DNA of 64,000 bases, taken from positions 496,001 to 560,000 of the forward strand of contig NZ_JACHXA010000002.1 of NCBI RefSeq assembly GCF_014191775.1, in the 5' to 3' direction. The position numbers and the translations under genes are program-made. Every line of letters starts with the position of its first letter. Within the stretch, counting starts at the first letter, position 1. This DNA comes from Limibacillus halophilus. Its GTDB lineage: Bacteria; Pseudomonadota; Alphaproteobacteria; Kiloniellales; CECT-8803. The notes beneath the pieces were generated by a model. It was not told where the DNA came from and searched no databases. It was given only the letters and a program-made list of their open reading frames with translations. Below, one piece after another: positions 33,634 through 36,298 of this stretch.

Positions 33634-33780
33634 CTGTTGCTCCCGTTCGTTGCCCAGTTCAACGCCTTAGCCAGGGACTACCTGGCGATTTATTCGGGTG
33701 TTATTCCCCTGGCGCTTTTCCCCCGGCGCCCTGTTGTCCCACGAGCGGTATGGACAAACGCACTGCCGCACACTCGCTTA

Positions 33781-33815
33781 TGGGAATAAATGGGATATCA
33801 TGGGAATTCATGGGC
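33781..33815. promoter_or_regulatory. Four MraZ boxes (TGGGN repeats)
   Basis: On the plus strand TGGGA, TGGGA, TGGGA and TGGGC start at 33781, 33791, 33801 and 33811, that is, with exact five-base spacers. This matches the known MraZ target of TGGGN direct repeats with five-base spacers. They lie 148 bases before the mraZ start. The TGGG reading is on the strand opposite to the dcw genes. Binding by MraZ is inferred from the pattern. Confidence 0.85.
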
Positions 33816-33820: not shown

Positions 33821-34147
33821 TGAAAAGCGCAGTAAAAAGCGTAGTCTCACAAGGCTTTACTCGACCCTCGCAATGCATCGAATAAGCCTAAAATCGTCAT
33901 TAATTGCTGCAGCAAGCAATCAAGCAGCGGAATGTGGCGAGTTTTTGTTCCGGTTGTGTTCCCGCAACGACAAAACCACGGGAAAACAAGGCGCTGTCAC
34001 GCAGCGTGAATCTAAGTTCTTCTTTTGTTCTATTTGAAAGAGGGCTGGAAGAGTAGAGTTGGGTGGACCGGTTAAATCTGTTTTTAAGGTTTAAACACGC
34101 TGATTAATCGATAGATATTCTCTCCACACATTGCTACCAATAGAGGC

Positions 34148-35038
34148 ATGACAAAGATCATTGTAGCGATCCCAAGGCGGTTCAATCTCACAACAGTCCA
34201 TAGCTTCCTGGCTAAGCTAATCGGCCCTGAGGAGAAACCCAAAACTAAGAATTTTATCTTTGATTTCCAGTATCTTGAATTTATTGATGGAGGTGGCTTA
34301 ACAGCCTTAACCAACATTATTGAGTGGCTCCGGTTGTACAATGCCAGCATCGAGTTCTGCAATTTCTCACACTCAAATGAGAGCGTTCGCTATCTCGATG
34401 ATTGTGGATTCTTCGAACTCTATCTGGGTCGGCCGCTTTTGGGCGTCGCCAAAGTGCGCAAGACAACGCTCCCAGCTCGCCAAGTATTGCACGCCGAGAG
34501 TTTTCAGTGGCTTGAATTGACTTTCAAGCCTTGGCTGGCAAACCTTCTAAACATGACTCAGGCGTCCCTTGCCAGTATCAACGCCTGCTTAAAAGAGATT
34601 TTTAACAACATCGATGATCATTCGACGAAGGACATCGGGTGTATACACGTACAACATTACCCGAATGTGGATCGTGTCGAAGTCACGATTTCGGACTTCG
34701 GGGTTGGTATACCCGCAAGCCTTTCGCAGAAATACGCGTTCCATAATGATGGCAAAGCAATTCTTCTAGCGACACAAGAAGGAATCACGACAAAAAGCCT
34801 CGTCAACAACCGCGGCGCGGGGCTCAAGCTGCTGATTGATTACGTGGTATCTAGAAATAATGGGAAAGTTATCATATATTCCGGTCATGGCGTGGCCCAT
34901 TTTTATCGCCGCCCCAACGGCATTGGTGAGCGCTCTTGGGTGAAGGCCAACTTCTATCCTGGCACACTGTTGAACATCAGCTTTCGGACCGACACCATAG
35001 AACAGGTGCCAGACGATAGGGAGGATTTGGAATGGTAA
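34148..35038 (+). CDS. STAS-like domain fused to a HATPase (histidine-kinase-like ATPase) domain
   Basis: A 296-residue cytoplasmic protein. Residues about 1-95 resemble a STAS domain (FIFDFQYLEFIDGGGL then a helix and ASIEFCN), but the loop that in SpoIIAA carries the phosphorylated serine (D-S-S-G) is D47-G-G-G50. Residues about 135-280 are a GHKL-type ATPase: N box E150, N154, H158; G1 box DFGVGIP at 183-189; G2 box NNRGAGL at 220-226. No sensor, membrane segment or phospho-acceptor His domain is present, so it resembles SpoIIAB/RsbW-type kinases more than two-component kinases. It overlaps the next gene by seven bases. Base composition is low in GC compared with flanking genes, suggesting acquisition by transfer. 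Output unknown. Confidence 0.8.
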   Translation: MTKIIVAIPRRFNLTTVHSFLAKLIGPEEKPKTKNFIFDFQYLEFIDGGGLTALTNIIEWLRLYNASIEFCNFSHSNESVRYLDDCGFFELYLGRPLLGVAKVRKTTLPARQVLHAESFQWLELTFKPWLANLLNMTQASLASINACLKEIFNNIDDHSTKDIGCIHVQHYPNVDRVEVTISDFGVGIPASLSQKYAFHNDGKAILLATQEGITTKSLVNNRGAGLKLLIDYVVSRNNGKVIIYSGHGVAHFYRRPNGIGERSWVKANFYPGTLLNISFRTDTIEQVPDDREDLEW

Positions 35039-35328
35039 TCAGAGCTTTAGATCACGTACCTCAGTGCTATACGTCAAAAGACGGCACAGTGATTTTTACC
35101 TTGATTCGCGCCGCTTTTTTGCGCGACCAATCCGTTACCTTATCTTTTGATGGCGTAGATGACGTTCCCTCGTCCTTCGTGAATGCTGCTTTCCTCAACC
35201 TCCTGGATTCGTTCCCGCTGGACTACATTCAGAAAAATTTAAAGGTTGTAGATTCGACACGTCAAATTAACGACATAATTCGACGTCGGTTTGCCGTGGC
35301 GCATAGTAGCCCAGTCATAGCGGCCTAG
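35032..35328 (+). CDS. STAS-like DUF4325 protein
   Basis: A 98-residue protein whose second half (VPSSFVNAAFLNLL ... IQKNLKVVDSTRQINDIIRRRF) matches the DUF4325 STAS-like pattern. It keeps a Ser-Ser pair (S47, S48) where SpoIIAA-type proteins are phosphorylated. The ATG lies within the last codons of the STAS-HATPase gene, so the two are translated together, and a kinase-substrate or partner-switch relation is likely though unproven. Low GC like its partner. It is followed by a convergent GNAT gene 11 bases away. No DNA-binding domain. Confidence 0.8.
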   Translation: MVIRALDHVPQCYTSKDGTVIFTLIRAAFLRDQSVTLSFDGVDDVPSSFVNAAFLNLLDSFPLDYIQKNLKVVDSTRQINDIIRRRFAVAHSSPVIAA

Positions 35329-35339
35329 TATTCCAAGCC

Positions 35340-35837
35340 CTAGTCCAGCGGCAGTTTCATGCCGATATGACTGGCCTTGAAACCGAGGCGTTCATAAAAG
35401 CGGTGGGCGTCCGGGCGCGTCTGATCGGTGGTGAGCTGTACGAGGCCACACCCTAAAGATCGCGCACGCTCAATGGCGAAGGCCATCAAACGTTGACCGG
35501 CCTGCTGGCCACGTTGGGAAGAGGCGACGCGCACGCCTTCGATCTGCGCGCGGGACATGCCGCGTCTGCTGACACCGTGAATGACCGTAAACTGCAAACA
35601 GCCTACAACCGCACCGTCGATCTCGGCCACCAAAAGCTCATTGCCGCCTTGCATGGACATCGCGGCGAAGGCTTTTCCATAGGCTGGATCTAGCGCCTTG
35701 CCGTTTGGTCCCGGCGGGACTTCACGACCGGCGCCCAGATTGTCGGCGGCCAGGAGCGCGACAACGCTGGGCAGGTCGGCTTCGCGGGCCGGACGGATCA
35801 TCAGGGGCGTCGTCTCGCTGTTTGGTTCTTGGGACAT
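35340..35837 (-). CDS. GNAT-family N-acetyltransferase
   Basis: A 165-residue acetyltransferase. The beta-strand plus pyrophosphate loop reads IEGVRVASSQRGQQAGQRLMAFAIERA, the R/Q-x-x-G-x-G/A acetyl-CoA motif, followed by LGCGLVQLTTDQTRPDAHRFYERLGFKAS, typical of the fold. The substrate cannot be told. ATG at 35837 is preferred; the longer frame to 35945 would run into the RNase P RNA gene just upstream on the same strand. Convergent with the DUF4325 gene. Confidence 0.9.
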   Translation of the reverse strand: MSQEPNSETTPLMIRPAREADLPSVVALLAADNLGAGREVPPGPNGKALDPAYGKAFAAMSMQGGNELLVAEIDGAVVGCLQFTVIHGVSRRGMSRAQIEGVRVASSQRGQQAGQRLMAFAIERARSLGCGLVQLTTDQTRPDAHRFYERLGFKASHIGMKLPLD

Positions 35838-35881
35838 GTGCGTCACCCTTCCCGCCCCGTGGGACTTGTAGAAAAATAAAG

Positions 35882-36298
<417 letters not shown>

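What the first reader, a model, noticed from the sequence alone, without database searches (positions are those of the whole stretch)
34148..35328. Two-gene STAS-HATPase / DUF4325 unit in a low-GC pocket
Seen: a STAS-like domain whose phospho-site loop is D-G-G-G is fused to a complete GHKL ATPase (N, G1, G2 boxes) and overlaps a second gene for a DUF4325 STAS-like protein that keeps Ser-Ser (S47-S48). GC is low (one sampled 60-base line 35%, another 52%, against 67% in rsmH). Known: SpoIIAB/RsbW kinases phosphorylate a serine in a separate STAS partner. Inference: the fused STAS is a dead or regulatory copy and the DUF4325 protein is the real substrate, forming a transferable partner-switching module. 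No sigma factor or phosphatase lies next to it, so its output is unknown.
Basis: partly seen in the sequence, partly recalled or inferred. Interest (0 to 1): 0.65.

Follow-up and report, generated by a model that had tools for sequence, protein, structure and literature searches.

The report
Toxin-less VapK–VapS-type kinase–substrate pair
Two overlapping bacterial genes encode a protein kinase and its likely target, related to a newly described DNA-damage-linked phage-defence switch but without that system's toxin gene, and this stripped-down pair has spread as a mobile unit through prophages and chromosomes of distant bacteria.

Summary
In detail: a STAS–GHKL kinase gene (34148-35038, "K") overlaps a DUF4325 gene (35032-35328, "S") by 7 bp in a low-GC pocket between mraZ and a GNAT gene/rnpB. 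But relatives are already described: the pair resembles VapK–VapS, the sensor half of the vapKSC toxin–antitoxin/anti-phage operon, and CapK–CapS (EMBO J, June 2026). What differs: the window K lies in a well-supported clade (30 rows, 100/100) with no VapC, no conserved third gene, no VapC-blocking tail on S, and a clade-specific conserved helix on S. The clade spans Alphaproteobacteria, other Pseudomonadota, Desulfonema and Bacilli; copies lie next to prophage lysis genes, in two cases directly behind restriction genes, or alone between other genes, as here (an insertion into an otherwise conserved rnpB–mraZ gap). Best reading: a mobile, possibly ssDNA-triggered kinase→STAS switch for stress or phage defence whose output acts in trans. 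Activation and output are inferred, not shown. New variant of a known kind.

The parts
34148..35038 (+). K: STAS-GHKL kinase (VapK/CapK-like), 296 aa, no N-terminal HTH
   Evidence: ORF; Pfam STAS over cut-off, HATPase_c under it; AF2 pLDDT 91.2, nearest fold SpoIIAB Z 14.8; clade tree
34148..34432 (+). K STAS domain (about residues 1-95); F45 and degenerate loop D47-G48-G49-G50
   Evidence: Pfam 5-91; STAS folds align at model residues 1-95; column counts
34457..35002 (+). K GHKL kinase domain (about residues 104-285): N box E150/N154/H158, G1 183-187, lid with TTK, G2 223-225
   Evidence: VIA alignment to SpoIIAB 104-283; invariant columns in 37 rows
35032..35328 (+). S: DUF4325 STAS-like protein, 98 aa, VapS-like
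   Evidence: ORF; Pfam DUF4325 47.1 bits; profile of 7 S proteins hits PDB 9z7o VapS at E 3.2e-9; window S alone only E 0.87
35170..35175 (+). codons of S Ser47-Ser48; Ser47 aligns with VapS S48 and begins helix 47-59
   Evidence: alignments, column counts, AF2 secondary structure
35260..35307 (+). codons of S C-terminal helix 77-92 (clade-specific Q78-I79-N80, I83, R86)
   Evidence: AF2 helix 77-92; 81-94% conserved in the clade, nearly absent in the vapKSC-type rows
35020..35038 (+). GGAGG ribosome-binding-site-like stretch and ATGGTAA overlap inside K's 3' end (translational coupling of S to K, inferred)
   Evidence: junction comparison of 29 loci
34039..35884 (.). insertion in the conserved rnpB-mraZ gap: K, S and a GNAT gene (ORF 35340-35945 as listed; a later start near 35837 would clear rnpB)
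   Evidence: flank alignment to G001; rnpB next to mraZ in 9 of 9 other genomes tested

Best explanation
The two genes form a complete, mobile kinase-substrate switch of the VapK-VapS/CapK-CapS type that carries no toxin or DNA-binding part of its own. K (STAS-GHKL) is probably kept off until phage infection or DNA damage produces single-stranded DNA, which by analogy binds the groove between its STAS and kinase domains near F45. Active K then phosphorylates S on Ser47. Phosphorylation changes what S binds. Because no effector gene travels with the pair, S itself most likely acts on a target already present in the cell, perhaps through the clade-specific C-terminal helix (residues 77-92). The likely outcome is a growth or replication brake that protects the host (or the resident prophage) against phage or DNA damage. 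Shown here: gene pair, homology, conserved catalytic and phospho-site residues, overlapping coupled start, a clade without a third gene, horizontal spread, prophage and some restriction-system contexts. Inferred from homology: the kinase reaction and ssDNA sensing. Inferred only: S as the output, and the protective role.
For: The S profile finds PDB 9z7o VapS at E 3.2e-9, and the alignment puts window S47 on VapS S48. S47 is S/T in 31 of 31 clade rows. K's kinase domain is nearest SpoIIAB and RsbW by fold and its ATP-site residues are invariant. K tree: 30 window-like rows form one group (100/100); with a Bacteroidota trio (97/89) and then the vapKSC-type rows they form larger groups (98/93). 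Published: CapK phosphorylates CapS when given ssDNA; vapKSC protects E. coli against one phage and needs VapS S48 and VapK F54 (PMC13373217). F45, just before the loop, is aromatic in 24 of 30 clade rows. Context: the pair follows lysis genes in Streptococcus phages and in a phage-gene-bearing S. agalactiae plasmid record; endolysin, holin and integrase families occur among 91 neighbour proteins; a type I restriction system lies directly upstream in the nearest relative by identity (L034/L131) and Eco57I-type genes upstream in Streptococcus ferus. No recurrent third gene in 32 loci. Single-chain proteins join the HATPase and DUF4325 parts.
Against: No experiment exists for this clade. ssDNA activation was shown for CapK only; the authors could not test VapK. 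VapK and CapK sequences were not in hand, so F45 = VapK F54 is positional inference; 6 of 30 clade rows lack an aromatic there. S48, not S47, is the strictly invariant residue in the clade (31 of 31; S47 is 27 Ser and 4 Thr), so the acceptor could be S48. R222 near the lid is kept in 20 of 30 only. Window S alone finds VapS at E 0.87 only; the fold of S has no significant Foldseek match. Defence neighbours are few: no PADLOC family matched more than 2 of 91 neighbour proteins. LexA-type boxes upstream are not a clade feature. A complex model could not be run.
Confidence: 0.55

Rival explanations
1. Classical partner switching: K is an anti-sigma factor for a host sigma factor encoded elsewhere and S is the anti-anti-sigma factor.
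For: K's GHKL domain is closest to SpoIIAB and RsbW by fold; S has a weak STAS-like fold match (SpoIIAA Z 5.3).
Against: No sigma factor or phosphatase among the six window neighbours scanned and no recurrent third gene in 32 loci; the nearest characterised relatives act on a toxin or a repressor; a pair moving between Bacilli and Alphaproteobacteria would need a conserved sigma partner.
Confidence: 0.13
2. Orphan remnant: the pair is what is left of vapKSC after loss of the toxin, without a function of its own.
For: No PIN gene; S lacks the long C-terminal tail. Some copies are broken: K split over two ORFs in L059/L113 and L119, region around G2 missing in L036 (same locus as L118), K fragment and S separated by an IS5-type transposase in L007. 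L130 shows a vapK-vapS-type pair without a visible vapC.
Against: A single 30-row clade across phyla keeps the ATP-site residues, S/T47, S48 and a clade-specific helix in S and an overlapping start site; repeated independent decay would not give this.
Confidence: 0.12
3. Prophage-serving device: the pair neutralises host defences (for example holds a host VapC in check) or tunes prophage induction by sensing ssDNA.
For: After lysis genes in Streptococcus and Bacillaceae prophage-like loci. Outside the window clade, related pairs lie between repressor and integrase in phages Javan172 (with a Peptidase_M78 protein) and Marinitoga MPV1.
Against: Many copies, including the window's, are not beside phage genes; S lacks the VapC-blocking tail.
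Confidence: 0.13

Closest known systems
VapK-VapS-VapC (vapKSC), PMC13373217, PDB 9Z7O
   Same: K has STAS + GHKL without N-terminal HTH; S is a STAS/DUF4325 protein with S/T at the VapS S48 position; adjacent co-directional genes; found on mobile DNA or near defence genes
   Different: no PIN toxin gene; S ends at 98 aa without the VapC-blocking extension; S has its own conserved C-terminal helix and an invariant S48 (A or P in the five vapKSC-type rows)
CapK-CapS regulators of immune operons, PMC13373217
   Same: STAS-GHKL kinase followed by STAS substrate; restriction genes directly upstream in some loci (88 of 443 in the paper; L131 and L116 here)
   Different: K has no N-terminal HTH, S has no winged HTH; no immune operon follows
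SpoIIAB-SpoIIAA / RsbW-RsbV
   Same: kinase fold (Z 14.8 to SpoIIAB 1til_E, 11.5 to RsbW 6m37_C); STAS-type substrate with Ser at a helix start
   Different: STAS fused to the kinase; no linked sigma factor; S is only a distant STAS-like fold (Z 5.3 to SpoIIAA)
Single-chain STAS-HATPase-DUF4325 and HTH-HATPase-DUF4325 proteins (N-terminal parts assigned by eye)
   Same: the same HATPase and DUF4325 parts joined in one chain (7 and 4 of 25 DUF4325 matches in the class)
   Different: one gene; the six STAS-type forms put in the tree lie outside the window clade; the HTH forms L018, L021, L030 read G-Q-A-F, without Ser, at the S47/S48 positions

Membership tests
vapKSC | kinase with CapK-like STAS and GHKL domains, without N-terminal HTH | tested here: met
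vapKSC | VapS-like STAS protein with the conserved Ser/Thr (VapS S48) | tested here: met
   S47 aligns with VapS S48; S/T in 31 of 31 clade rows
vapKSC | adjacent VapC-like PIN toxin gene | tested here: not met
   a GNAT gene on the opposite strand lies 11 bp after S; no conserved third gene in 32 loci. Positive controls: PIN found by Pfam in L013, L128, L129
vapKSC | VapS C-terminal extension that blocks VapC (residues 94-116) | tested here: not met
   window S is 98 aa; model helix ends at 92 and the tail has low confidence; the vapKSC-type rows run further
vapKSC | conserved aromatic for ssDNA (VapK F54) | tested here: inconclusive
vapKSC | phosphorylation of S by K and phage protection | not testable with these tools
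   needs biochemistry and plaque assays
CapK-CapS | N-terminal HTH on the kinase | tested here: not met
   STAS match begins at residue 5
CapK-CapS | winged HTH on the STAS substrate | tested here: not met
   S is one 98-aa domain
SpoIIAB/RsbW anti-sigma kinases | GHKL serine-kinase fold with Glu/Asn/His N box | tested here: met
   (catalytic roles recalled)
SpoIIAB/RsbW anti-sigma kinases | linked sigma factor or PP2C phosphatase | tested here: not met
   (six neighbours; one without a family); an unlinked partner is not excluded

The most novel reading that the evidence does not exclude
In the window clade the STAS protein itself is the effector and acts on a target conserved from Bacilli to Alphaproteobacteria, making this a minimal two-gene immune or damage-response system.
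Probability: 0.3. Interest if true: 0.7.

Novelty: new variant of a known kind. Interest (0 to 1): 0.5.

Why it matters
The published survey kept only loci with vapK, vapS and vapC (Methods), so pairs without a toxin were left out by design. A toxin-less clade that crosses phyla suggests that the sensor half is useful alone and that S has another target. It gives DUF4325, still 'unknown function' in Pfam, a testable role as a kinase substrate, and the K–S–third-gene operons suggest that the module swaps effectors.

Tried and rejected
SOS control of the pair: two GTTCN7GTTC boxes (alphaproteobacterial LexA consensus, recalled) lie upstream of K (33947, 34016), and one lies about 50 bp from the LexA DNA-binding-domain match in this genome; none lies within 400 bp of the recA match. 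Rejected as a property of the pair: such a box also lies in the rnpB–mraZ gap of 7 of 9 other genomes of the order, none of which has a K match, and of 33 other upstream rows scanned only L065, L061 (other strand) and L113 (Bacillus-type) had one (L131 and L034 are one locus, L111 and L064 near-copies).

A C-terminal acidic 'EE-x-F-E-W' motif in K looked like a protein motif; it is explained by the ribosome-binding site and ATGG start of S encoded in the same bases. The PADLOC hit of K to DrmA covers only the HATPase part. Foldseek found no significant match for S (best E 0.15); VapS did not appear. A look for close relatives of Escherichia VapS gave nothing in viral contigs, 2 records each in plasmids and phages and 4 of 398 genomes. 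The equivalence of the ssDNA residue could not be verified. In one search I first read nine reverse-strand loci in the wrong orientation; redid them. L037 is below the Pfam cut-off and lies inside a transporter-like ORF; dropped. The first viral scan with window K alone found no relative.

Full report
WHAT IS THERE. K (34148-35038 +, 296 aa) and S (35032-35328 +, 98 aa) overlap by 7 bp. K is STAS plus GHKL; S is DUF4325. Composition differs from the surroundings: GC 47.6% and 46.8%, GC3 0.56 and 0.49, against window GC 59.9% and GC3 0.76-0.77 in rsmH and mraZ. The genome has one DUF4325 match. With K as query, the only other hit in 57 relatives of the order was a 79-residue match at E 7.7e-4.

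TAXONOMY. The tools name no genome. The window's class is Alphaproteobacteria by inference: same-class genomes G682 and G418 share contigs (same lengths and K proteins) with named Methylobacterium (L107) and Rhizobium (L118) records.

AN INSERTION. In the order, rnpB sits directly upstream of mraZ: RNase P RNA was found on the mraZ locus of 9 of 9 other genomes tested (the window's own 1.5-kb flank did not reach rnpB). Aligned to the nearest relative (G001), window homology stops at about 34038 on the mraZ side and 35885 on the rnpB side, two points about 120 bp apart in G001. The window has K, S and a GNAT gene there; in 11 other genomes the best GNAT relative has no mraZ within the flanks fetched, so the GNAT gene seems to belong to the insertion or to have moved too. 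No integrase was named among the six neighbours scanned, and only short repeats (up to 24 nt) were found.

ARCHITECTURES. DUF4325 matches in the class: 25 in 22 of 385 genomes. By ORF inspection: 9 STAS–HATPase + DUF4325 + small third gene (L020, L022, L025-L029, L040, and L035 cut by its contig), 1 divergent case (L039), 7 single-chain STAS–HATPase–DUF4325, 4 single-chain HTH–HATPase–DUF4325, 3 pairs like the window (window, L034, L036), 1 spurious (L037). Domain names here are partly by eye. The single-chain forms argue that HATPase and DUF4325 work together.

WINDOW CLADE. A tree of 55 K proteins puts 30 window-like rows in one group (100/100), K of the third-gene operons in one (100/99), six single-chain forms in one (100/99), and the vapKSC-type rows (L013, L128, L129 with a PIN gene by Pfam; plus L012 and L130, without) in one (100/99). 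The clade holds Alphaproteobacteria, Massilia, Desulfonema, Bacillaceae and Streptococcaceae, the mark of horizontal spread. It is rare: of 398 genomes of the same phylum, 28 (own included) had any match to the K profile at E 0.001 and 2 besides the window's had a full-length window-type hit.

NO THIRD GENE. In 32 window-type loci the next ORF after S is on the other strand in 20, on the same strand in 9 (4 of them within 50 bp, none of the four related to another), and not seen in 3 (crude ORF calling; some loci are near-copies, such as L111 of L064). Clustering gave no recurrent neighbour beyond phage-type genes, ABC-transporter ATPases and near-copies (the print-out was cut and only partly repeated). 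By eye from those clusters, lysis genes lie within three genes of the pair in about 9 of the 32. I scanned 91 neighbour proteins: 87 of the 150 that one search listed (doubtful ORFs and all of L060, L065 and L119 left out) plus four I added (three restriction genes of L131, one ORF of L061). Of the 91, 6 matched the commonest endolysin family, 4 a holin family, 3 an integrase family. PADLOC on the same 91 gave 142 families, of which the 25 shown are restriction and Mads types, none with more than 2 members: defence neighbours are few. Restriction genes lie directly upstream in L131 (the L034 locus; type I HsdM/S/R) and L116 (Eco57I type).

RESIDUES. S47 is S (27) or T (4) in 31 clade rows; S48 is S in 31. 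In the five vapKSC-type rows position 47 is S or T and 48 is A or P. Over all 40 rows of A12, 39 have S/T at 47; the exception is L009 (H). S47 begins helix 47-59 in the model. The clade-specific helix 77-92 has Q78 87%, I79 90%, N80 81%, I83 94%, R86 84%; the vapKSC-type rows share none of these except I83 in one. In K, position 49 is variable, so the fused STAS is not a conserved phospho-acceptor. F45 is aromatic in 24 of 30 clade rows and W in 4 of 5 vapKSC-type rows.

STRUCTURE. K model: mean pLDDT 91.2, pTM 0.89, residues 221-223 and the tail weak; SpoIIAB first (Z 13.9-14.8), RsbW 11.5, other GHKL proteins about 10-11, STAS proteins on residues 1-95 at about 10. S model: mean pLDDT 92.7; only moderate STAS matches (SLC26A11 Z 7.5, RsbS 6.3, SpoIIAA 5.3), so the placement of S rests mainly on the sequence link to VapS.

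COUPLING. In 19 of 29 junctions S starts ATGGTAA, ATGGTGA or ATGGTAG, where K's last codon TGG and its stop overlap S's start; GGAGG (15) or GGAAG (5) lies just upstream in 20 of 29 (L034 uses GTG at the same place and is missed by the count of 19). The conserved K tail is therefore explained at the RNA level, as translational coupling.

KNOWN SYSTEM. PMC13373217 (abstract; sections 7, 11-14 and 17 read; other passages by find) describes CapK–CapS and VapK–VapS–VapC. CapK, activated by ssDNA, phosphorylates CapS S54; VapS S48E no longer binds VapC in a pull-down done once; vapKSC gives about 2 logs of protection against one phage; S48A and VapK F54A abolish it; ssDNA activation of VapK itself could not be tested. 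The term DUF4325 does not occur in its main text, and its search kept only loci with all three genes. In the open-access library 'DUF4325' occurs in 2 papers, 'vapKSC' in this one only, 'STAS-like domain-containing' in 1; PMC9341999 and PMC7924643 list such a gene in prophages (one passage each). Subscription papers and preprints outside this library were not searched.

MECHANISM. K–S as kinase and substrate: likely. ssDNA trigger: plausible by homology. S as output through its C-terminal helix: my inference from the absence of an effector gene and the clade-specific conservation. Defence role: suggested by kinship, prophage slots and two restriction neighbours, but untested.

Noticed in passing
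L135:7913-8461, L136:8033-8521, L137:8004-8450, L138:8068-8640, L132:8030-8554, and the matching genes of L139-L141: Three-gene operons K-S-small protein in the window's class: the third protein (about 145-190 aa) has an N-terminal hydrophobic stretch (by eye), a Trp invariant in 8 of 8 rows (YW in 6) and TGG-x-F in 4 of 8; no Pfam family over its cut-off in 5 of 5 scanned. Possible effector-swapped version of vapKSC. Type I or MmeI-type restriction genes lie upstream in L135 and L137.
   Followed up: partly
window 34016-34030 and 33947-33961: LexA-type boxes GTTCN7GTTC in the rnpB-mraZ gap; one is also present in that gap in 7 of 9 other genomes of the order, suggesting SOS control of the mraZ (division) operon.
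   Followed up: partly
window 33780-33814: Repeated ATGGGAAT..ATGGG boxes upstream of mraZ, resembling MraZ operator repeats (recalled).
   Followed up: no
L036/L118, L059/L113, L119, L007: Broken copies of K in or close to the clade: region around the G2 box missing, K split over two ORFs, or an IS5-type insertion.
   Followed up: partly
L130:7402-8808: A vapK-vapS-type pair in a genome of the window's class with no PIN gene seen after it, near a DUF262-like gene (by eye).
   Followed up: no
L012:3237-5279: Streptococcus phage Javan172 carries a vapK-vapS-like pair between a regulator gene with a Peptidase_M78 (ImmA-like) gene and the integrase.
   Followed up: partly
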